From the NCBI GenBank assembly GCA_946886725.1, contig CAMPJF010000021.1, positions 1 to 11,465 of the forward strand: 11,465 nt of DNA, read 5' to 3'. Shown here one piece after another: positions 2,215-11,465 of the stretch; within the stretch, counting starts at the first letter, position 1; the number at the start of each line of letters is the position of its first letter. The position numbers and the translations under genes are program-made. The notes below the pieces were generated by a model. It had not been told where the DNA came from and did not search any database. It saw only the letters and a list, made by a program, of their open reading frames with translations. Source of the DNA: an uncultured Candidatus Saccharibacteria bacterium (GTDB lineage: Bacteria > Patescibacteria > Saccharimonadia > Saccharimonadales > UBA6022).

Positions 2215-2493
2215 TTAGTCCGATACTTTTTGTACCGTGATACGAAAACTGGCGCCGCTAGGTTCGGTGAGAACGCCTGACATTCTGTCATAGCGGTCAA
2301 GGTGACTGATCAACGTTTGGACGCAGCCATACACCTGCACTGCTCGATTGACGATATCCGTAGCACTTAAACTTTCTGCAGCGATACACTCCTCGAGAGC
2401 CTTTTGCGACGCAGAGTTAAACATGATCGGAATGCTCTGATGCTCACCTTTCGAATGGTTACGGATAGGAAACTGGATGATGTTGTCATTCAC
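2215..2493 (-). CDS. Small ribbon-helix-helix-like protein, possible autorepressor
   Basis: A 92-residue soluble protein. Residues about 21-60 have the layout of MetJ/Arc-type ribbon-helix-helix proteins: a short strand (SIPIMFN), a helix ending in EECIAAESL, a serine turn (SATDIVNRA) and a second helix. The C-terminal part (RITVQKVSD) resembles a dimer strand. I see no catalytic motif or membrane segment. The start is GTG at 2493, supported by AGGAG six bases upstream; an ATG three bases later is out of frame. It is a single-gene unit with its own promoter (2541-2571) and terminator (2166-2200), and a perfect palindrome at the predicted transcription start suggests negative self-regulation. 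Related small proteins in actinobacteria and CPR are often annotated only as hypothetical. The fold assignment is inference; that the gene is real is well supported. Confidence 0.7.
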   Translation of the reverse strand: MNDNIIQFPIRNHSKGEHQSIPIMFNSASQKALEECIAAESLSATDIVNRAVQVYGCVQTLISHLDRYDRMSGVLTEPSGASFRITVQKVSD

Positions 2494-3416: not shown

Positions 3417-4091
3417 ATGAAATACACCACACCGTACGTTGCTCCAACCCTAACGGTAGATGCAGTCATCTTCAAGCTGATAGATGGCACACTAAATACG
3501 CTCCTCTTGAAGCGACCGAACGAACCATTTAAAGGTTCATGGGCACTGCCTGGTGGGTACAACCCCGAAGGCGAGACGACACTTGACGCGCTTGATCGTA
3601 TCATGAAAGAAAAGACGGGCATCTCTATCCATGCCGATTTGCGATATGTCGAACAGCTATACACGTTTGATACCGTTGCGCGTGATCCGCGCGGACATGC
3701 AGTGTCGGTCACCTACACCGGCTATGGTCGCGACATCAATCCGACCGAAAGTGAAACGATAACATTCTTCCCCGTCGACCAACTTCCGGAACTGGCATAT
3801 GATCACGCCGACATCATTAAATACGCACATGAGCGGCTGATTTCAAAGCTTTCGTACACAAATGCCGTCTACGCCTTTTTACCGCCAACATTTACTCTGG
3901 CTGAACTGCAAACCGCATACGAAGCAATCTTCGGTCACGAACTTGATAAGCGTAACTTCCGCAAAAAGTTCCTGAGCCTTAATCTCATTCATGAAACCGA
4001 CCAAATGAAACGCGAAGGTGCTCATCGTCCCGCCCGCTTGTATGCCTTTAATGCGCAGACGCTCGAATCACTACCGCGCAGCTTCGACTGA
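3417..4091 (+). CDS. nrtR: NrtR-type Nudix-related transcriptional regulator of NAD metabolism
   Basis: A 224-residue protein with a Nudix fold (about 10-140) and a C-terminal winged helix (about 148-215), whose signature stretch DKRNFRKKFLSLNLIHET and GAHRPARLYAF is typical of NrtR. NrtR proteins bind ADP-ribose in the Nudix pocket and release operators upstream of NAD biosynthesis or salvage genes. The Nudix box is degenerate: G47, E53, R61, E65 and G68 are kept, but the REUxEE core reads RIMKEK, losing the first catalytic Glu, so hydrolysis is unlikely and sensing likely. It begins at ATG 3417 on a predicted leaderless transcript. It is convergent with the PurA-like gene and stands 4 kb from pnuC-nadR, its expected target. 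ADP-ribose as effector is known for characterised relatives and inferred here. Confidence 0.88.
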   Translation: MKYTTPYVAPTLTVDAVIFKLIDGTLNTLLLKRPNEPFKGSWALPGGYNPEGETTLDALDRIMKEKTGISIHADLRYVEQLYTFDTVARDPRGHAVSVTYTGYGRDINPTESETITFFPVDQLPELAYDHADIIKYAHERLISKLSYTNAVYAFLPPTFTLAELQTAYEAIFGHELDKRNFRKKFLSLNLIHETDQMKREGAHRPARLYAFNAQTLESLPRSFD

Positions 4092-4111
4092 CCACTCTAT
4101 CACTAAGCATG

Positions 4112-4162
4112 AAAAACCCCTCGCTTCTCGTAGCTTACAAAATAAAGCTAGAAACGAGGGGT
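4112..4162 (-). terminator. Terminator of the PurA-like operon
   Basis: ACCCCTCG (4116-4123) pairs with CGAGGGGT (4155-4162); an inner TAGCTT/AAGCTA stem (about 4131-4148) extends the structure. On the minus strand it is followed by TTTTTC, seven bases after the stop codon of the PurA-like gene. It also separates it from the convergent nrtR, which has no clear T-tailed terminator of its own. Confidence 0.8.
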
Positions 4163-4168
4163 GGTTCC

Positions 4169-5509
4169 TCAATGCGCGACAAGAGCGCGTTTTTCAGTCG
4201 CTGATGGACCGTATGAGGTAAGACCGACAGGAACGCCAAGCGTTTCTTCGATCACGGATAGTAACCGTTCACTCCCAACAGTATGTGAAGGGGAGTAAAT
4301 GGGGCGACAACGAGACAGATACTCGGTGAGGCGACCTTGGTACGTAAGATCAGCAAAGGGCCCGACCTTAATCGCACTTGCACCTCCATTCGTGTCAAAA
4401 TCGAAATACACACCACGATCATGACCGTCCGGCACTTGGTACCGCTGACAGTAAAGCCATGAATCCTTGCGGTCCATACCCGTCACTACCAATTGATCGA
4501 TACCGCCAGAAACTGCGATAGCATATTGATGCGCCAACAGGTCAAGATGACCGTAGCGAAACGCACCTTGCCACTGCCCGGTGCCGTTATGATACTCGGG
4601 GAGCTCGTGCGCTAAATCAGTATCTTCGGTGACAAGCGGACCAGGACCATGCCGAGTGGTATAGGCTCGGAGGATTCCTAGCCGTCGAACATCGTCTGCG
4701 TACTGGATGTCATCGAGTAACTGCAATGCATTCGCAGGCGTTGTCGTACTCCACGTCGTATACGGATGAAACCCGTACCATTCATCAAGCAGAACACCCT
4801 GTGCGCCTTCGAAAAGCAGCTGCTCGGTTTGATCGGCTAGGATACTAAGATAATTCATCCCCACTACTTTGACAAGTCGCACCCAATTGCGGTACGCAGC
4901 TGTCAGTAATGCGACGAATGAATCGTCATTCAGCAGCCCCCAGTCGGCAGTGCCGTTTTTAATCACGCCAATTTCTTGACGCACCTGTTCTCGTTTATAT
5001 AGACGAAGTGCATCGAGCTTTTGCGGCAGATCTCTCTCGATGTCCTTCACTCGGATGACGAGATCAGGCCTGTCGATAGAGTCCGCCATCGTTTCACCGA
5101 TACCTTGACCGCAGCTGCCGTGCCGACCGTTACCTCGCGCCAATTCACGCAGCCGGTTCGCTGCTTGTTGCCACGGGGTAATAATTAACGCTTCACGGTC
5201 GACTGTTGTGCGCTGCCAAATGTCACGAACCCCCAATTGCTGCAGATGCTCGGCCTCGGGAAACATCGCCAGAGGATTAATCAGCATAAACCGCGAAAGG
5301 TGCGTCGATGTACCGTCAATAAAACTGCCGCTACCAAACTGCGCAAAGGTATGATGCCGTCCATCAGGAGTGATCACATTATGCGCTGCCTGCGGTCCGC
5401 CATTGTAGCGAACCACAACCGATGGCGCCTGGCGGGCCAAATAGTCTACGGTCGTCCCCTTGCCTGCATCACCAAATCCTAGATCGGTAACGATTACTGC
5501 ATGTGCCAT
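4169..5509 (-). CDS. Divergent adenylosuccinate-synthetase-like enzyme
   Basis: 446 residues, aligned end to end with PurA, which joins IMP and aspartate using GTP. Recognisable: GFGDAGKGT (11-19; usual GDEGKGK, base Asp14 and Lys17 kept, Glu to Ala), a GG..AAHN block with His43 in place of GHT, FEGAQGVLLDEW (233-244), TRHGPGPLVTE (285-295, usual TRVGxGPFPTE) and GVPVGLTSYGPSATE (425-439). The guanine-specifying TKxD is TGMD (343-346), so Lys is lost; the usual aspartate-loop TTGRxR is not evident. I therefore think it is a paralogue with altered nucleotide or acceptor rather than the housekeeping purA. Keeping the Asp argues against phage PurZ, reported to carry Ser there. ATG 5509 is preferred to 5512 because AAGGA then sits six bases upstream. 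It is the last gene of a three-gene operon after the J-pseudokinase and vWA genes. Confidence 0.82.
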   Translation of the reverse strand: MAHAVIVTDLGFGDAGKGTTVDYLARQAPSVVVRYNGGPQAAHNVITPDGRHHTFAQFGSGSFIDGTSTHLSRFMLINPLAMFPEAEHLQQLGVRDIWQRTTVDREALIITPWQQAANRLRELARGNGRHGSCGQGIGETMADSIDRPDLVIRVKDIERDLPQKLDALRLYKREQVRQEIGVIKNGTADWGLLNDDSFVALLTAAYRNWVRLVKVVGMNYLSILADQTEQLLFEGAQGVLLDEWYGFHPYTTWSTTTPANALQLLDDIQYADDVRRLGILRAYTTRHGPGPLVTEDTDLAHELPEYHNGTGQWQGAFRYGHLDLLAHQYAIAVSGGIDQLVVTGMDRKDSWLYCQRYQVPDGHDRGVYFDFDTNGGASAIKVGPFADLTYQGRLTEYLSRCRPIYSPSHTVGSERLLSVIEETLGVPVGLTSYGPSATEKRALVAH

Positions 5510-5535
5510 CATTTATCCTTAAGGTAATAGGGGGT

Positions 5536-5567
5536 GGCCAGAGCGAGTGTTTGATCTCACTCTGGCC
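5536..5567 (-). other. Intercistronic hairpin between the vWA and PurA-like genes
   Basis: GGCCAGAG (5536-5543) pairs perfectly with CTCTGGCC (5560-5567), with three more inner pairs after a mismatch. No T run follows on the minus strand, so it is more likely an mRNA stability or processing element, or a partial attenuator, than a terminator. It fills most of the roughly 70-base gap between the two genes. Confidence 0.5.
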
Positions 5568-5579
5568 GCCTCATCGTAT

Positions 5580-6632
5580 TTACAGGCGCGTTACGTCAGT
5601 ACTTCCACTAACGTCCAGCGTCGTATCTGATGTCGCAACCGTGCCGCCACTCGCACCGCCATTGACTGTTGCCAACGCGCGGCCAGCGGACCTGATCGCC
5701 TTGAGATCAGCGCCGACTTCCTGAAGATCTTCGAGACCTTCGCTCAGCGACACCGTTCCCTCCATCAGCCCAAGCGTCAATGCGATCGTTTCACACACCG
5801 CCGAGGCATCATCGAGGATCAGGGCGTTTTGACCAAGCAAATCTCGCCAGTAGCAGACGTTGTTGTCGCCGTCACTGTAATACGACGTCCGATGACTGCC
5901 CTTGTACAGAACACCCTCGGCTTCGTATGACGCCTGCGACGCAAACAAGAAGAACACTTCGAACTTCTTTTTGAGCTCTTCGAACACCTGAACGGTTGTC
6001 AGGTCTTCCTGGAGCTTGTCGCCGATGAGCTTTTCAACCTGACGGCGATCAATGCGCGAATACACGCGCTCGTCGCCAATCAGGAATAGATAGCCTTTGC
6101 GTCCCTGCTTGTTTGCATCAAGTACTGCATGCCGCGCCAAATAGTAAGCGGCGAGCTGATATGACTCATGGTTGCCGCCACCGCCGCCACCCTCGAGTAC
6201 GATGTTGCCGAGCGTGTCATCCATACGGTTGTCACTCTCGAACTGTCCGATTTGCAGCGGCATCGTATCCGAGTACGCATCGCCGACTGCGCCGAACAGG
6301 ATTTGCGGATCCTCGACGTAGCCTTTTCGCTGCAATAGCCCATGCAGCTGCGGCAACTTCTTTTGCAACACCAATGGAATGCCACCCATCGAACCTGTCA
6401 CGTCAAAAATGACGGCAATCGGCGTCGCATTGGGATGTTCCGAAGAGTTGAGCGCCTCGCGGACATTCAAGCCCGCTGCGTTCAACTTGATCGGATCAAG
6501 CCCCTCATGAACCTTGCGCGCAGCCCGCCCCGAACGCACTCTGTCCGAATAATCGAACGTTGAACGTCCCGCGGCAGCAGCCTTTGCGGCATTGTCCGTG
6601 TACGTAAAACTACTCCACGATCCTCCACCCAT
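5580..6632 (-). CDS. vWA-domain (MIDAS) protein
   Basis: 350 residues; von Willebrand factor A fold, a metal-dependent protein-binding module. The first MIDAS motif is DVTGS (77-81, Asp-x-Thr-x-Ser); a further acidic motif FGAVGD (112-117), a six-glycine run followed by NHESY (to about 157) and FLIGDE (182-187) supply the remaining metal-site loops. There is no signal peptide or membrane segment, so it is cytosolic. The N-terminal 70 residues are Ala/Gly-rich; the C-terminal tail (about 320-350) is Gly/Thr/Ser-rich and probably disordered. I prefer ATG 6632 (MGGGSWSS) over GTG 6641, because AAGGA lies about ten bases before the ATG but only one before the GTG. It follows the J-pseudokinase gene by 20 bases and precedes the PurA-like gene, suggesting a scaffold or partner role. 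Substrate unknown. Confidence 0.85.
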   Translation of the reverse strand: MGGGSWSSFTYTDNAAKAAAAGRSTFDYSDRVRSGRAARKVHEGLDPIKLNAAGLNVREALNSSEHPNATPIAVIFDVTGSMGGIPLVLQKKLPQLHGLLQRKGYVEDPQILFGAVGDAYSDTMPLQIGQFESDNRMDDTLGNIVLEGGGGGGNHESYQLAAYYLARHAVLDANKQGRKGYLFLIGDERVYSRIDRRQVEKLIGDKLQEDLTTVQVFEELKKKFEVFFLFASQASYEAEGVLYKGSHRTSYYSDGDNNVCYWRDLLGQNALILDDASAVCETIALTLGLMEGTVSLSEGLEDLQEVGADLKAIRSAGRALATVNGGASGGTVATSDTTLDVSGSTDVTRL

Positions 6633-6652
6633 TTTGGGCACTTCCTTTCTTG

Positions 6653-7786
6653 TTATGTATCACCCTTTGGCAACACAAGTGGCAAAAAGCGTCGCGGAAA
6701 ATACGGCGCTCCCATTGTCTCAAGCAATTCATCAAATTCCCTGAGTAGCAGCCATGCGTTCTGTGGACGCATTGACTGGTGTTTTTGTATACACCCACGC
6801 AGAAATGCGCGAATGGGCATTGGCACCGCATGCGGTAAAGTACCTGACATAGGGTCACCGCCCAAAAGCAAGATAATGCTGCGCGCCGCCATCACAATAT
6901 CCGTTGCCGGACTTGGAGAACGCTTCGCAAACACCTCTTCAGGGTACCAATCCTTATAGGTCGTAACGACCACTTTGACCGGCGGAAATGCTTGACCCGC
7001 CTCAGCAAGGCTGGCGTAGCACCAATCTACCAGTACAACGCCATGCTGCTCTGGCAATACCATCACGTGGCGCGGCAATACCGCACCATGGATAACGTTA
7101 TTATCATGAGCAAAGCCCAATGCCGCCAGCAGACGACGAAATATCCACACAGCATGACGCGAATCAATGCCGCCAGGAAATATCCGTCGCAACTGATCAA
7201 GGGAATAAAATCCCTTTAGCAGCGGCGTCACATTCGCCTGTTGTCGTGCGCCTGAGCTTGCAGTATATAAAAAAGAGTCAAGAAGCTTCGGCACATAGCA
7301 TTGCCACTTCTCTTCGGTGTTCTTACTATGCAAGCGCTTTAGCGCCAGCGCTTCGGTCAGCAACAGATCGGAATCAGAAGGATTTTTTGCAATTTTTACA
7401 AACATATCCTTCGTTCCAGTACCGTCATTTGACGACGACGCGTAGGTTGCGCATATATCACCGTCGCCCAATGCGTACTGCAGCCGATGCGTCGCCCGCT
7501 TCGAAGTTATTGTCGCCAGATATACTGGCTGACCATACCGCCCAGACCGAACCGCTTCATCGGCTTGCTGTCGCAACACGCCGAGCTTTACGAACGCTTC
7601 TGATGCAGTGGCTTTGCTGCACCAATCGCTATAACGATCCGGATGCAGAACACGAGCCAAAGCACGAAATGTCTTTTTGATCGACGCATCAGCGTCACTA
7701 TCCATATCTACGGAATCAAAAATATCCATATAGCTAGCTGCTGATGCGATACGCTCTGCTGTCGCTAACAAGATCGTATCTGTCAT
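6653..7786 (-). CDS. J-domain/protein-pseudokinase fusion
   Basis: 377 residues, two domains. Residues about 18-85 are a J-like domain with the diagnostic HPD (48-50), which in DnaJ stimulates Hsp70 ATPase. Residues about 95-360 have a protein kinase fold: FVKIA (Lys131), helix-C Glu145, catalytic-loop equivalent VIHGAVLPRHVMV (232-244), VLVDWC (Asp254, DFG equivalent), YPEE (281-284, APE equivalent), Asp296 and Arg340. In the HRDLKPxN motif the catalytic Asp is Ala235, the Lys is Leu and the Asn is His, so phosphotransfer is doubtful although nucleotide binding could persist. ATG 7786 is set by AGGAGG eight bases upstream; the frame stays open to 7951 by chance. First gene of the operon with the vWA and PurA-like genes. 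Likely a scaffold that recruits Hsp70 or senses nucleotide; the partner is unknown. Confidence 0.83.
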   Translation of the reverse strand: MTDTILLATAERIASAASYMDIFDSVDMDSDADASIKKTFRALARVLHPDRYSDWCSKATASEAFVKLGVLRQQADEAVRSGRYGQPVYLATITSKRATHRLQYALGDGDICATYASSSNDGTGTKDMFVKIAKNPSDSDLLLTEALALKRLHSKNTEEKWQCYVPKLLDSFLYTASSGARQQANVTPLLKGFYSLDQLRRIFPGGIDSRHAVWIFRRLLAALGFAHDNNVIHGAVLPRHVMVLPEQHGVVLVDWCYASLAEAGQAFPPVKVVVTTYKDWYPEEVFAKRSPSPATDIVMAARSIILLLGGDPMSGTLPHAVPMPIRAFLRGCIQKHQSMRPQNAWLLLREFDELLETMGAPYFPRRFLPLVLPKGDT

Positions 7787-7813
7787 TATTGTCACCTCCT
7801 TGTTAATGAGCAG

Positions 7814-7886
7814 ACGACGTTTTCGTGTCGTCATGTGCACGTGCCTCGACCAACGTATTTCGTCAGAAGGCATCAGGAAAGATGCC
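7814..7886 (-). other. Structured leader of the J-pseudokinase operon
   Basis: The predicted start near 7922 gives a leader of about 135 bases with two perfect 6-bp hairpins: GGCATC/GATGCC (7869-7886) and GACGAC/GTCGTC (7814-7833). The first hairpin's loop (UUUCCU plus one stem base) is complementary to CAGGAA at the leader's 5' end (7915-7920), allowing an alternative or pseudoknot pairing. No terminator T run was seen. Confidence 0.35.
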
Positions 7887-7919
7887 GCCAACAGATGTTG
7901 TCGTTCTTCTTTTCTTCCT

Positions 7920-7942
7920 GATAGTGTCAGAATAACACTATC
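7920..7942. promoter_or_regulatory. Palindrome over the operon's -10, candidate operator
   Basis: GATAGTGT (7920-7927) and ACACTATC (7935-7942) are perfect inverted repeats with a seven-base centre that contains the -10 hexamer of the leftward promoter. Arm length and spacing suit a dimeric repressor. It differs in sequence from the TGTAAA-type palindromes nearer pnuC, so two different regulators may act in this region. Confidence 0.55.
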
Positions 7943-7958
7943 AAAAAACAAATGTCTA
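7929..7958 (-). promoter_or_regulatory. Promoter of the J-pseudokinase/vWA/PurA-like operon
   Basis: Minus strand: TAGACA (7953-7958, five of six consensus), 18 bases, TATTCT (7929-7934) with an extended TGT upstream. The -10 sits exactly inside the centre of a 23-bp palindrome (7920-7942), so a regulator bound there would exclude polymerase. Confidence 0.6.
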
Positions 7959-7965
7959 TAGTTTG

Positions 7966-7978
7966 TGTAAATTTTACA
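7966..7978. promoter_or_regulatory. TGTAAA-T-TTTACA palindrome, candidate operator (copy 1)
   Basis: A perfect inverted repeat with a single central base. It lies 22 bases before a TATACT (7990-7995) and upstream of the better pnuC promoter at 8001-8029. A relaxed copy occurs exactly 33 bp further on. NrtR or NadR-linked control of pnuC-nadR is the natural guess, not demonstrated. Confidence 0.45.
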
Positions 7979-7998
7979 ATATCATTAGCTATACTTAG

Positions 7999-8011
7999 TG
8001 TTTACATTACA
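7999..8011. promoter_or_regulatory. Related motif over the pnuC -35, candidate operator (copy 2)
   Basis: TGTTTACATTACA shares nine of 13 positions with copy 1 and contains the -35 hexamer TTTACA (8001-8006). The 33-bp offset is about three helical turns, placing both sites on the same DNA face. Confidence 0.35.
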
Positions 8012-8029
8012 TTATCTATGCTCTATAGT
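8001..8029 (+). promoter_or_regulatory. pnuC-nadR promoter
   Basis: TTTACA (8001-8006), 17 bases, TATAGT (8024-8029); each hexamer matches consensus at five of six positions. Start predicted near 8036, leader about 47 bases. An alternative -10, TATACT at 7990-7995, lacks a good -35. Confidence 0.7.
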
Positions 8030-8082: not shown

Positions 8083-8748
8083 ATGAATGCACTACTAACC
8101 TTTTTCGACGTCAATAATACGTTTTTCACCCTACTAAGCTACCCGATTAGCTACCTCGAGTTTACCGGCACGCTATTTAATCTTGCATCCGTATGGTTAA
8201 TCGCAAAACGAAATATATGGACATGGCCTATCGCGACGATTGGCGTGATATTATTTTGCGACCTTTATTATCAGATTAAGCACTATGCATATTTCTTTTA
8301 ACAGATCAAATACTACATAACTTGCCTTTGGGGCTGGTATCTATGGCAGACGAGCCGACAAAAGACCGAGGACAACAAAGTGTCGATTGCAACCAACACA
8401 TATAAAGCCAACCTGTACTGGGTCGGAGGCATCGCTATAGCTAGCATTATTACGACATGGCTATTAATCCACTTAAATATTTGGATGCCGCGACTTTTTC
8501 CAGAACCAGCATCACTACCCGGCATTGACGCCACGACAACCGTCATGAGTTTTGCCGCAACAATCCTAATGATCCGTCGTCGTGTTGAGTCATGGATTTT
8601 GTGGATACTAGTGGATATCGTCGCCGTCTGGCTGTACTACTACAAGGAAGTTCCCTTCATTGCACTTTTGTATCTCGTATTCCTCGGCATCGCTATCAGT
8701 GGGTATATCACATGGCGCCGTGCAAGTAAGCAGATCCTAGTATCATGA
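8083..8748 (+). pseudogene. pnuC: PnuC nicotinamide riboside transporter split by an in-frame TAA
   Basis: Membrane transporter importing nicotinamide riboside by facilitated diffusion, trapped by NadR kinase. Translating past the TAA at 8299-8301 gives a complete 222-codon PnuC in one frame. Before the stop: YLEFTGTLFNLASVWLIAKR and NIWTWP, with the first helices; after it QIKYYITCLWGWYLW, the conserved Q..Y...GWY.W segment, then four more helices with RRRVESWILWILVDIVAVW near the end. The stop replaces one residue just before the conserved Gln, where relatives usually have Leu; TTA to TAA needs one change. ATG 8083 is set by GGAGG five bases upstream. A GTG at 8380 preceded by GAGG (eight-base gap) could restart the second half. 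The gene ends in an ATGA overlap with nadR. Broken gene, readthrough, or sequence error cannot be separated here. Confidence 0.85.
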
Positions 8749-9791
8749 AAGGACTCGTCATCGGTAAATTCTACCCACCACACCTTGGGCATTCGTACCT
8801 CATAGACTACGCGCTCGCACATAGCGACACTGTCGACGTCTTAATATGCGACAGTTCAAAGTACGTCATTCCCGCTAGGCAACGGCAACTGTGGCTACAG
8901 GCGATTCACCCAACCGCAAACGTCAGAATCATTCCCGACCTAGACGATGATGATAACTCGCAGGCATGGGCGGACCATACACGGGCATTTCTTGGCTACA
9001 GCCCCGATATCGTATTTAGCTCAGAGAATTACGGCGCACCGTATGCGACATTTATGAACGCCGACCACCATATGGTTGACCTTGCCCGATTGCATATACC
9101 CATCAGTGCGACACGCGTTCGAGAAAATATCATACGAGAGTGGCAATATCTTCATCCTATCGTCAAGGCTGATCTTGCCATCCGCGTAGTTGTCATTGGC
9201 GCCGAATCAACAGGTACGACAACGCTTGCCCGCGATATTGCTAAAAAATTACGCGCACCGTGGGTTCCCGAGTACGGTCGACTGTACAGCGAAGGTCTGC
9301 AATCTGCTAACCATAAGTGGAATAATGAAGATTTTGTACATATTGCCGCCACTCAGCAACGTATCGAAAAAAGAATTGCCAGCCAATCGAATGGAATAAT
9401 CGTATGTGATACCAATGCATCAGCAACCCAGCTATGGCAAAAACGCTACCTGCACACAACATCAAAACGTGTTCACGAAATTGCCATGCATGACAAGGTA
9501 AACTTTTACGTTATTACTGGCGATGAAATCCCCTTCGTCCAAGACGGCACACGAGACGGTGAACACATCCGACACGCCATGCACCAGGACTTCATTACAC
9601 ACGTCAAAAAAAGTGGAGTCCCCTACCTCATCGTAGCTGGTAGCAAAGTTAGCCGCTTGAAGCAGGCCATGTCAGCGATCAACCGTCTCCTTAACCATGC
9701 CGCTATCATCAAAGACCCGAAAACGGCAACTATTGTTGGTCCAGTAGTCGTTCGGCGATCTCGACCTGAGCCAATAGCTCTTGTCCGCTAA
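8745..9791 (+). CDS. nadR: NadR: NMN adenylyltransferase and nicotinamide riboside kinase
   Basis: Bifunctional enzyme that phosphorylates nicotinamide riboside to NMN and adenylates NMN to NAD. At 348 residues it has no N-terminal DNA-binding domain, unlike enteric NadR. N-terminal nucleotidyltransferase: GKFYPPHLGH (7-16, GxFxPxHxGH) and ISATRVR (120-126). C-terminal kinase: P-loop GAESTGTTT (152-160), EYGRLYSE (176-183), CDTN (221-224, usually CDTD) and QDGTRD (266-271). The P-loop lysine is Thr158, which would weaken kinase activity unless this is a lineage variant. Its start overlaps pnuC by four bases (ATGA), with only a weak Shine-Dalgarno, implying translational coupling. The last 20 or so residues look unstructured and overlap the convergent phosphatase gene by 62 bp. 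With PnuC it forms a complete NR-to-NAD route. Confidence 0.93.
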   Translation: MKGLVIGKFYPPHLGHSYLIDYALAHSDTVDVLICDSSKYVIPARQRQLWLQAIHPTANVRIIPDLDDDDNSQAWADHTRAFLGYSPDIVFSSENYGAPYATFMNADHHMVDLARLHIPISATRVRENIIREWQYLHPIVKADLAIRVVVIGAESTGTTTLARDIAKKLRAPWVPEYGRLYSEGLQSANHKWNNEDFVHIAATQQRIEKRIASQSNGIIVCDTNASATQLWQKRYLHTTSKRVHEIAMHDKVNFYVITGDEIPFVQDGTRDGEHIRHAMHQDFITHVKKSGVPYLIVAGSKVSRLKQAMSAINRLLNHAAIIKDPKTATIVGPVVVRRSRPEPIALVR

Positions 9792-10554
9792 ATCGCTGTC
9801 GACCAGGTAGTTCAACCCACTCCCCGCCGTCCGGTGATTGATCAATCTTATCTGGATAGATCATGCGACGCCAGTGAAGTTTATCGCGAATATCCGTCGG
9901 ATCATTTGGATTAACGCGAGAGTAATGCGTAACGCTACAGTTGCGTATTGTATACGAAGGGTCGCGATCAAGTGCCTCCCACTGCTCTGGTAACATACGC
10001 TCGACGCCGTATCGCGCCACGTTAATAAAGTCACCATGCGACACGACAATAACACGACTACCCGATTGCTCACGGTGCAATGTTCCTTGGAAATCACGGA
10101 AACGACCATACACATCTGGCATACTTTCTCCACCGTCGAATCGAACATACCATGGAGTTGATCGATGTAATTTGTTTGTCAACGGAAATTGCTTGCGCTG
10201 TTCGGCACGTGCAACTGTTCCATACACACCCCAGCTTCGCTCTACTACACGATCATCGACTGTCCATTCGCCACAATCTTCACCACCAATATACGCTGCG
10301 GTTTCGCGCGTACGAAGAAAAGGTGAGAGGTAGCGGCCGTCGAAAGATTGCACACCCCCAAGCTCGCGATCGATCCATACTTTTGCCATCTTAGCTTGTT
10401 GTATACCCAATTGAGATAGGCGCTGCTGCCAATCAGGCCGATCATTAACAGACTGAATAACATCAAGTGAAGGTTGCGGTGCGATTTCTTTTTGAATAAT
10501 ATTAGCTTCGGATTGGCCGTGACGGACAAAAACAAGATCGTTGGGCATTGGCAT
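9730..10554 (-). CDS. Histidine phosphatase superfamily protein (phosphoglycerate-mutase-like)
   Basis: 274 residues, soluble. The phosphohistidine motif is VRHGQSEAN (His12 in RHG, 11-13); SPFLRTRETA (77-86) supplies the second phosphate-binding Arg, Glu106 in VVERSWG is the likely acid, and VVSHGDF (170-176) carries the second catalytic His. Insertions after the first motif and in the last 80 residues make it longer than simple SixA or CobC relatives, so the substrate cannot be named. Members act on phosphosugars, nucleotides, phosphoproteins or cobalamin intermediates. ATG 10554 has AGGA nine bases upstream; ATG 10548 fits worse. It has its own promoter directly after the ADP-ribosylglycohydrolase stop. 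Stop codon TAG. Context suggests a role with phosphorylated NAD or ADP-ribose products, which is inference. Confidence 0.85.
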   Translation of the reverse strand: MPMPNDLVFVRHGQSEANIIQKEIAPQPSLDVIQSVNDRPDWQQRLSQLGIQQAKMAKVWIDRELGGVQSFDGRYLSPFLRTRETAAYIGGEDCGEWTVDDRVVERSWGVYGTVARAEQRKQFPLTNKLHRSTPWYVRFDGGESMPDVYGRFRDFQGTLHREQSGSRVIVVSHGDFINVARYGVERMLPEQWEALDRDPSYTIRNCSVTHYSRVNPNDPTDIRDKLHWRRMIYPDKIDQSPDGGEWVELPGRQRFSGQELLAQVEIAERLLDQQ

Positions 10555-10580
10555 TGTAGTTTTTCCTATTTACTGACTAC

Positions 10581-10609
10581 AGTATGACAACCTAGCGCAA
10601 TTTCCGCAA
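10581..10609 (-). promoter_or_regulatory. Promoter of the histidine phosphatase gene
   Basis: Minus strand: TTGCGG (10604-10609), 17 bases, CATACT (10581-10586) with an extended TGT. A small inverted repeat TACTG/CAGTA (10571-10584) overlaps the -10. The -35 abuts the stop codon of the upstream gene, so the phosphatase can be transcribed alone or by readthrough. Confidence 0.55.
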
Positions 10610-11465
10610 CTAACTATGTCGCAGCGCAACCGCTGCTAGCTGCATAGAAACCCCACTCAGATATTCATAGTTGGCCGTCACAGCAAAATCATGTGGTTTT
10701 TCATATCTTCCGTGACTGACAAAATTCACCATCGAAGCGACAATCGACGATGTGCTGTCACTGTCGCCACCGATATTCGCCGCCATATAGACACTTTCAT
10801 GAAAGTTGGGCGCCTTCGATAGAAATGCAGCATACGCTATCATCAAAGTTTCTGGTGCATAAAAGCCATATTTAAAACCACTAGTCGTATTCTCGAACTG
10901 CGTTAAAATATCATCAGATGACAAATCTTGTCCTGTCCCTAGAAACTGCAGCGACTCACTGGTGGCCATAGTCATTCCGAGTCGCTGTTCGTGGTCCCTC
11001 GCGGATGCGACTATATATTGCGCAAAATCATCTCGATTAAAATCTTGGCCAGTGTTCATTAGGTATATTAACGTGTCGCCGTGGAGGCGCGTACATAAAC
11101 GCGCGACATCACTATCATGTGTCATCGTCGTTAGCTGGTCGTACTGCTCATACCTTTTATCATCAGACACGCCTTGCCCCGCCTGCCACAACACCAAAGG
11201 AGACATCTTCATTAACACACCGTTACCTGCCCCGTTCACTTCGCCGGACAGCGTAGGTGACGCGCCGTCAATAAGGCGCTCTATGCTATGAGTCGTCGAC
11301 CCACCCCAGCCTCTTCGTCGCACTTTACCATTCCGGTCTGTTACTTCGGGCGTTTCATAATATGCCGCTACGTGTGTTTGTATTTGTGATTCTATTGTAA
11401 AGTTTTGAGCACGAATAATTGCGTTCGCAACAGCCAACGTCAACTGCGTGTCATCACTCCACGTT
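10610..11465 (-). CDS. ADP-ribosylglycohydrolase (ARH/DraG family), 5' end outside the window
   Basis: At least 284 residues; the frame stays open to the right edge, so the N-terminus is missing. The family hydrolyses ADP-ribose from protein residues, nucleic acid or small molecules using two Mg ions. First metal motif: WSDDTQLT at the very start of the visible part (SDDT, usual [ST]DDT). Middle motif: GAGNGVLMKMSPL, matching GNGxxMR.xP. Last metal motif: NIGGDSDSTSSIVASM, matching GGDxDTxAxIxGA. TTG 11443 is not the true start, because the SDDT motif lies upstream of it. The known family is about 300 residues, so only a short N-terminal piece is missing. Stop codon TAG at 10610. Next to NadR and with nrtR in the same window, it points to NAD-derived ADP-ribose turnover. 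The target is unknown. Confidence 0.88.
   Translation of the reverse strand, partial: TWSDDTQLTLAVANAIIRAQNFTIESQIQTHVAAYYETPEVTDRNGKVRRRGWGGSTTHSIERLIDGASPTLSGEVNGAGNGVLMKMSPLVLWQAGQGVSDDKRYEQYDQLTTMTHDSDVARLCTRLHGDTLIYLMNTGQDFNRDDFAQYIVASARDHEQRLGMTMATSESLQFLGTGQDLSSDDILTQFENTTSGFKYGFYAPETLMIAYAAFLSKAPNFHESVYMAANIGGDSDSTSSIVASMVNFVSHGRYEKPHDFAVTANYEYLSGVSMQLAAVALRHS

What the first reader, a model, noticed from the sequence alone, without database searches (positions are those of the whole stretch)
4169..7942. Three-gene operon: J-domain pseudokinase, vWA protein and divergent PurA-like enzyme
These genes run in one direction with gaps of about 20 and 70 bases, one promoter and one terminator. 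They combine an Hsp70-recruiting J domain fused to a kinase-like domain lacking the catalytic Asp, a MIDAS protein and a ligase-like nucleotide enzyme. I know no named pathway with this set. Inference: a regulated nucleotide-synthesis or signalling system in which the vWA and pseudokinase proteins control or chaperone the enzyme, possibly using or sparing NAD/ADP-ribose, given the shared control region with pnuC-nadR.
Basis: partly seen in the sequence, partly recalled or inferred. Interest (0 to 1): 0.8.

Follow-up and report, generated by a model that had tools for sequence, protein, structure and literature searches.

The report
Unnamed four-gene PurA-like ligase cassette
A set of genes (a purine-ligase look-alike, a metal-binding protein, a dead kinase carrying a chaperone-recruiting arm, and often an NAD-type regulator) travels together through bacteria and phages as one unnamed system, so an overlooked nucleotide pathway can now be tested.

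Summary
JK (J-domain pseudokinase), vWA and PurA-like genes form an operon; the convergent NrtR-like gene beside it belongs to the set. In 75 of 80 actinobacterial loci all three genes lie on one strand in the order JK-vWA-PurA; 74 loci have an NrtR-like gene. In 121 genomes of one family, vWA and cassette-type PurA occur in the same 62. The set also sits on plasmids, in mycobacteriophages and viral contigs. Thirteen of 13 genomes tested carry an ordinary PurA besides. The canonical aspartate loop is absent from 275 of 275 cassette-type PurAs. The kinase lacks its catalytic Asp in 260 of 261; the J-domain HPD stays in 240. Actinobacterial operons carry their own dyad, TTCTC-N5-GAGAA, in 58 of 64 loci against 1 of 640 control windows. 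NAD links recur (NrtR, NadV, PnuC-NadR) but are not universal. Most likely: an NAD/ADP-ribose-responsive nucleotide-ligase module with Hsp70- and metal-dependent helpers; substrate unknown. Nine open-access paper searches found no description.

The parts
6653..7786 (-). JK: J domain plus pseudokinase, 377 aa, ATG at 7786
   Evidence: HPD present, HRD Asp replaced by Ala
5580..6632 (-). vWA-fold protein with MIDAS-type DVTGSM, 350 aa
4169..5512 (-). PurA2: divergent adenylosuccinate-synthetase-fold protein, 447 aa
3417..4091 (+). NrtR-like NUDIX plus winged-helix regulator, 224 aa; Nudix box looks degenerate (read from the sequence against the recalled consensus)
   Evidence: Pfam NrtR_WHD 88.9 bits, NUDIX 53.1 bits; a relative in 74 of 80 actinobacterial loci
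7920..7942 (.). perfect palindrome GATAGTGT-N7-ACACTATC, candidate operator, overlaps the predicted -10 of the JK promoter
7961..7983 (.). degenerate copy of the palindrome (3 mismatches)
7994..8016 (.). degenerate copy (3 mismatches), overlaps the predicted -35 of the pnuC-side promoter
7929..7958 (-). promoter-like match TAGACA-18-TATTCT for the operon
   Evidence: not above chance on its own
4116..4162 (-). terminator-like hairpin after PurA2, between it and nrtR
   Evidence: -29.3 kcal/mol for 4104-4168, z -6.0
8083..9791 (+). context: divergent pnuC (interrupted by an in-frame TAA) and nadR, sharing the control region

Best explanation
The genes are the core of a discrete, mobile, NAD/ADP-ribose-responsive nucleotide-ligase module. 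PurA2 keeps the PurA phosphoryl-activation residues (P-loop aspartate and the catalytic histidine) but not the canonical aspartate-binding loop or the usual IMP contacts, so it probably joins a different amine and/or a different purine nucleotide than PurA does. The vWA protein (metal-ion-dependent) is its closest partner. JK recruits the cell's Hsp70 through its J domain, using the dead kinase as a scaffold, to assemble, activate or recycle that pair. In cells an NrtR-like repressor switches the operon on when ADP-ribose or a related ligand rises; phages mostly carry the genes without the regulator. Shown: linkage, co-occurrence, residue losses, folds, the actinobacterial dyad. Inferred: that the proteins act together, the ligand of the regulator, the chemistry of PurA2.
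For: Order JK-vWA-PurA on one strand in 75 of 80 actinobacterial loci, with median gaps of 10.5 and 5 bases by my choice of starts, and nrtR overlapping JK by 4 bases in 40 of the 71 loci that have both. vWA and cassette-type PurA (best E under 1e-40) in the same 62 of 121 genomes with no discordance; JK at 1e-20 in 52, all among the 62. Separate from housekeeping PurA (branch 1.94, support 100); 13 of 13 genomes have both. Canonical Asp loop absent in 275 of 275. HPD kept in 240 of 261 and in 38 of 39 members that lost Lys, Glu and Asp of the kinase site. TTCTC-N5-GAGAA upstream of nrtR in 58 of 64 loci against 1 of 640 windows; the 31 exact sites in the 80 loci all lie 92-303 bases before the nrtR match (compared by hand). 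Viral operons with NrtR, NadV, vWA, PurA, JK and an NMN-adenylyltransferase-like gene in L108/L109; NadV also near in L139 and L101.
Against: Apart from NrtR no NAD gene was seen beside the actinobacterial cassettes (one search shows 25 of 92 families). NadV is absent from 4 of 4 isolate phage records and from 6 of 12 viral contigs searched whole; the other 6 had been chosen because NadV was near. NrtR relatives can sense other ligands (AraR_C also matches). Vibrio and Rhizobium phages (3 records) have vWA and PurA but no JK match in the whole record; 14 of 80 viral loci have no JK match and 4 no PurA match, two of them (L099, L121) not at a contig end. The actinobacterial dyad does not occur in the window. 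No interaction or activity was tested.
Confidence: 0.45

Rival explanations
1. A conflict (anti-phage or anti-toxin) system: cells use the module to sense and repair, or exploit, NAD/ADP-ribose damage during infection; phages carry it to counter host defence or exclude rivals.
For: Patchy distribution (2 of 296 Actinomycetota genomes, one of them the seed), presence on plasmids and in several phage groups, a NADAR-like gene near it in two Vibrio phages, and NrtR-like Nudix repressors and vWA chaperones in predicted ADP-ribose conflict systems (PMC9503650, section 3.8 read in full).
Against: No excess of PADLOC matches near (82 ORFs) versus far (89 ORFs) from 18 actinobacterial cassettes (near list shows 25 of 30 families); no PADLOC model for vWA or PurA2; the 20 near-flank ORFs looked at singly are mostly ordinary metabolic or unassigned genes.
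Confidence: 0.3
2. PurA2 makes a modified purine building block (for DNA, RNA or a small molecule), as phage PurZ does for 2-aminoadenine.
For: PurA fold with altered loops; carried by large phages; one phage record names it '2-aminooxy adenylosuccinate synthetase' (annotator's label).
Against: PurZ model score 49.5 against a cut-off of 300; no recurrent base-modification gene among 93 viral neighbour ORFs (one MT-A70; 25 of 34 families shown).
Confidence: 0.15
3. A second, regulated adenylosuccinate synthetase that simply supplies AMP.
For: PurA match over almost the whole length; annotated so in records.
Against: Canonical aspartate loop absent in 275 of 275; N38 is Q wherever the motif was found; K331 mostly G or H (residue roles recalled); far below the equivalog cut-offs; ordinary PurA already present in 13 of 13 genomes.
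Confidence: 0.07

Closest known systems
Housekeeping adenylosuccinate synthetase (PurA, PF00709)
   Same: Fold, P-loop Asp and catalytic His, length
   Different: Canonical TTGRxRR aspartate loop absent, N38 to Q, R131 and K331 mostly replaced, E14 to A in most bacterial but not most viral members; separate in the tree
Phage PurZ (2-aminoadenine pathway)
   Same: PurA relative found in phages
   Different: Score 49.5 against cut-off 300; other gene neighbours
NrtR-regulated NAD salvage operons
   Same: NrtR-like NUDIX-wHTH gene; in some viral loci NadV and an NMN-adenylyltransferase-like gene; in the window PnuC and NadR
   Different: PurA2, vWA and JK are not part of any such operon that I found described
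ADP-ribosylglycohydrolase-centred predicted conflict systems (PMC9503650, section 3.8)
   Same: Nudix repressor plus a vWA chaperone; the window also has an ADP-ribosylglycohydrolase gene at 10610-11464
   Different: The words PurA, adenylosuccinate and J-domain do not occur in that paper's main text; the glycohydrolase is not a conserved neighbour of this cassette
Bixzunavirus (mycobacteriophage cluster C) genes, e.g. Turret 251 'serine/threonine kinase', 252 and 253 hypothetical, 254 'PurA-like adenylosuccinate synthetase'
   Same: Homologous genes in the same order
   Different: Annotated gene by gene, not as a system, in what I saw
MAD6/PglW-type defence kinases
   Same: Distant kinase-fold similarity
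   Different: MAD6 36.8 bits against 460 cut-off; JK is short, J-fused and lacks the catalytic Asp

Membership tests
Adenylosuccinate synthetase (PurA equivalog) | Score above NCBIfam equivalog cut-off | tested here: not met
   TIGR00184 140.6 of 395.55; NF002223 157.2 of 402
Adenylosuccinate synthetase (PurA equivalog) | Pfam PF00709 match | tested here: met
   203.2 bits, cut-off 27
Adenylosuccinate synthetase (PurA equivalog) | Canonical aspartate loop TTGRxRRxGW | tested here: not met
   0 of 275 cassette-type members, 11 of 13 housekeeping PurAs
Adenylosuccinate synthetase (PurA equivalog) | Makes adenylosuccinate from IMP, Asp, GTP | not testable with these tools
   biochemistry needed
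PurZ | Score above NF038379 cut-off | tested here: not met
   49.5 of 300
NrtR regulator | NUDIX domain plus NrtR winged helix (Pfam) | tested here: met
   53.1 and 88.9 bits, above both cut-offs
NrtR regulator | NCBIfam NF050029 cut-off | tested here: not met
   150.1 of 400
NrtR regulator | Binds ADP-ribose | not testable with these tools
   ligand assay needed
vWA domain | vWA fold | tested here: met
vWA domain | MIDAS-type motif DxTxSM | tested here: met
   74 of 76 rows of A3
J-domain protein | HPD motif | tested here: met
   window yes; 240 of 261
Protein kinase (active) | Catalytic Asp of HRD | tested here: not met
   Ala in the window; Asp in 1 of 261
ARG-centred conflict system (PMC9503650) | ADP-ribosylglycohydrolase as conserved core | tested here: not met
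   such a gene lies at 10610-11464 in the window, but the window protein found no relative in the fetched loci at 1e-4 and PF03747 matched 2 of 82 near-flank ORFs of 18 actinobacterial cassettes
Known defence system (PADLOC) | Model match for the core proteins | tested here: not met
   none at 0.01 for PurA2 or vWA; partial kinase-domain matches for JK (best 1e-9) and one NUDIX match for NrtR

The most novel reading that the evidence does not exclude
PurA2 is a new ligase that modifies the purine end of NAD- or ADP-ribose-derived nucleotides (joining an amine other than aspartate), built and gated by an Hsp70-linked J-pseudokinase and a metal-dependent vWA partner, and used by cells under an NrtR switch and by phages without it to hold or divert the NAD pool during conflict.
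Probability: 0.2. Interest if true: 0.88.

Novelty: categorically new. Interest (0 to 1): 0.72.

Why it matters
A gene set kept together in Saccharibacteria-like bacteria, Actinomycetota, Alphaproteobacteria (plasmids) and several phage groups must do something specific, yet its proteins are filed as 'adenylosuccinate synthetase', 'serine/threonine kinase' or 'hypothetical'. It gives a substrate-unknown ligase, a pseudokinase whose J domain outlives its kinase site, and a clean candidate operator, all testable in easy laboratory hosts (a cluster C mycobacteriophage in M. smegmatis mc2 155; Micromonospora or Streptomyces strains).

Tried and rejected
Rejected: chance adjacency; housekeeping PurA; PurZ; BREX/MADS kinase; defence-island location. 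An ADP-ribosylglycohydrolase core was considered because the window has such a gene; it is not conserved. Two of 82 near-flank ORFs matched PF03747; I tried to find which and did not.

Listing the best palindromes upstream of nrtR gave no motif by itself; counting dyads did. My gene caller made many shadow ORFs in high-GC DNA, so its neighbour clusters are only a rough negative. Paper searches found no description of the set; they cover open-licence PMC papers only.

Limits: the JK search in 121 genomes scored at most 16 candidates each, so 52 of 62 is a lower bound. In the phylum draw 287 of 296 genomes matched the JK profile at 1e-3, nearly all with kinase- or J-domain-sized weak matches; the only two strong ones (under 1e-60) are the two genomes with vWA. 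Of the 275 PurAs, 119 are database proteins whose neighbours I did not see; one had been dropped for length, and locus proteins under 330 aa were dropped too. That tree is a quick one with a midpoint root; four long viral rows fall on the housekeeping side of the midpoint (support 92). Viral members of JK are only 21-26% identical in many loci, so column calls there are approximate. Viral contigs may include misassigned bacterial DNA. PurA residue roles are recalled from the E. coli enzyme literature. The palindrome test used a pattern taken from its first site. The NadV argument rests on few loci, partly chosen for it.

Full report
1. What is in the window. Searches give three minus-strand genes: JK (best start ATG 7786, stop at 6653, behind a clear ribosome site), vWA (ATG 6632 to 5580) and PurA2 (5512 to 4169), with gaps of 20 and 67 bases. 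A strong hairpin followed by T's lies after PurA2. Convergent with PurA2 is an NrtR-like NUDIX plus winged-helix gene (3417-4091). Upstream, transcribed away, are pnuC and nadR. The window probably comes from a Saccharibacteria-type genome: all homologues that bear an organism name and rank high in all three searches are Saccharimonadales, Saccharimonadaceae or Saccharibacteria records; further down the JK list two are Chloroflexota. This is inference; no genome is held.

2. The proteins. PurA2 belongs to PF00709 (203 bits) but is far under the PurA equivalog cut-offs. Compared with E. coli PurA and 13 housekeeping PurAs fetched from actinobacterial genomes, the P-loop Asp and the catalytic His are kept. 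In 275 of 275 cassette-type members the canonical aspartate loop is missing (11 of 13 housekeeping ones match it); N38 is Q wherever the motif was found; R131 is mostly replaced; K331 is mostly G or H. E14 is A in most bacterial members but stays E in 57 of the 69 viral ones that match, so that change is not general. The 13 housekeeping PurAs form one side of a branch of length 1.94 with support 100 (quick method, midpoint root, four long viral rows on that side of the midpoint). The roles of these residues are recalled.

The vWA protein has no Pfam match but a confident vWA/integrin beta-I model and the MIDAS-type motif in 74 of 76. Its N-terminal MGxG-W tail is nearly invariant. JK has a kinase fold behind a helical N-terminus with the J-domain HPD. 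Over 261 members the catalytic Asp column holds Asp once, HPD is intact in 240, and of 39 members that also lost the ATP-site Lys, Glu and Asp, 38 keep HPD. So the J domain, not the kinase site, is what selection holds on to.

3. One system. A scan of the collection of 84,980 species genomes with vWA patterns confirmed 388 relatives; the best 80 are all Actinomycetota by title. In these, JK is found in 76, PurA2 in 79, all three in 75, always on one strand in the order JK-vWA-PurA2; an NrtR-like gene is in 74 of the loci, in 65 within 600 bases before JK, in some genera after PurA2. In 121 genomes drawn from the family of genome G001 (Actinoplanes, the genome of L002), vWA and cassette-type PurA (best E under 1e-40; the housekeeping one scores 1e-24 to 1e-33) occur in the same 62 genomes without exception. 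JK at 1e-20 was found in 52, all among the 62 (a lower bound). Across the phylum the set is rare: 2 of 296, one being the seed. Thirteen of 13 genomes have exactly two PF00709 matches, one of about 600 bits and one of 177-208. The set also lies on plasmids of Rhodococcus, Agrobacterium and Acetobacter (21 of 72,556 plasmid records have a vWA relative).

4. Phages. vWA relatives are in 208 of 50,697 phage records, 189 of them named Mycobacterium phages; in phage Turret the order is kinase, vWA, small ORF, PurA-like. Two Vibrio phages and one Rhizobium phage examined have vWA and PurA without a JK match anywhere in the record. Of 80 viral contigs, 76 have PurA, 66 JK, 63 all three on one strand (60 in the order JK-vWA-PurA), and 3 an NrtR in the stretch held. 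Exceptions: L099 and L121 have vWA without PurA though the contig goes on. So vWA-PurA2 looks like the minimal pair, JK the usual third member, NrtR the cellular switch.

5. Regulation and the NAD link. Upstream of nrtR in actinobacteria the dyad TTCTC-N5-GAGAA (up to one mismatch) occurs in 58 of 64 loci, 30 with two or more sites, against 1 of 640 control windows from the same loci. The exact form occurs 31 times in 1.53 Mb of the 80 loci, and by hand comparison all 31 lie 92-303 bases before an nrtR match. The window lacks this dyad; it has a perfect palindrome at 7920-7942 with two weaker copies towards pnuC, lying over predicted promoters. In viral loci L108 and L109 the cassette is inside a run of same-strand genes: NrtR, nicotinamide/nicotinate phosphoribosyltransferase (NadV), vWA, PurA2, JK, and a nucleotidyltransferase that resembles NMN adenylyltransferases below their cut-offs; L108 has a small ORF before vWA. 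NadV is also near in L139 and (a fragment) L101, and within 7 kb in L102 and L153. Against a general NAD rule: no NadV in the four isolate phages or in six other viral contigs searched whole.

6. Reading. I think PurA2 is a neofunctionalised ligase, vWA its metal-dependent partner, JK an Hsp70 recruiter on a dead-kinase scaffold, and NrtR an ADP-ribose-type switch. A conflict role is the main rival and not exclusive; the lack of defence genes around actinobacterial copies speaks mildly against it. PMC9503650 (section 3.8 read in full, the rest by term passages) predicts ADP-ribose conflict systems with NrtR-like repressors and vWA chaperones; PurA, adenylosuccinate and J-domain do not occur in its main text. 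PMC7824862 and PMC7159879 were seen by term passages only: no adenylosuccinate. PMC9476963 (one passage) lists the kinase and PurA-like genes as conserved in subcluster C1, nothing more. Nine answered paper searches brought no description of the set.

Noticed in passing
window 8083-8748 (+): pnuC is split by an in-frame TAA near 8299-8301, the frame continuing to 8748: a broken gene, a sequencing error or an unusual read-through.
   Followed up: partly
window 9730-11464 (-): A histidine-phosphatase gene and a 5'-cut ADP-ribosylglycohydrolase gene lie beyond nadR, a second ADP-ribose link in the window; not seen conserved next to the cassette elsewhere.
   Followed up: partly
L191 9802-10515, L192 7216-7935, L193 6657-7448: Vibrio and Rhizobium phages that lack JK share a methionine-rich ORF of unknown function upstream of vWA.
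   Followed up: no
L108 9699-9941: An 81-aa ORF upstream of vWA starts MGGGFW, like the vWA N-terminus, and repeats TRFDRIL twice; the MGGG-W tail may be a binding tag.
   Followed up: no
L191 15151-16659 and L192 12353-13861: A TROVE-type RNA-binding gene lies about 4.5 kb downstream of the Vibrio phage vWA gene, with a NADAR-like gene upstream.
   Followed up: no
window 2215-2493 (-): A 92-aa ORF with no Pfam match precedes a strong terminator-like hairpin (2171-2200).
   Followed up: no
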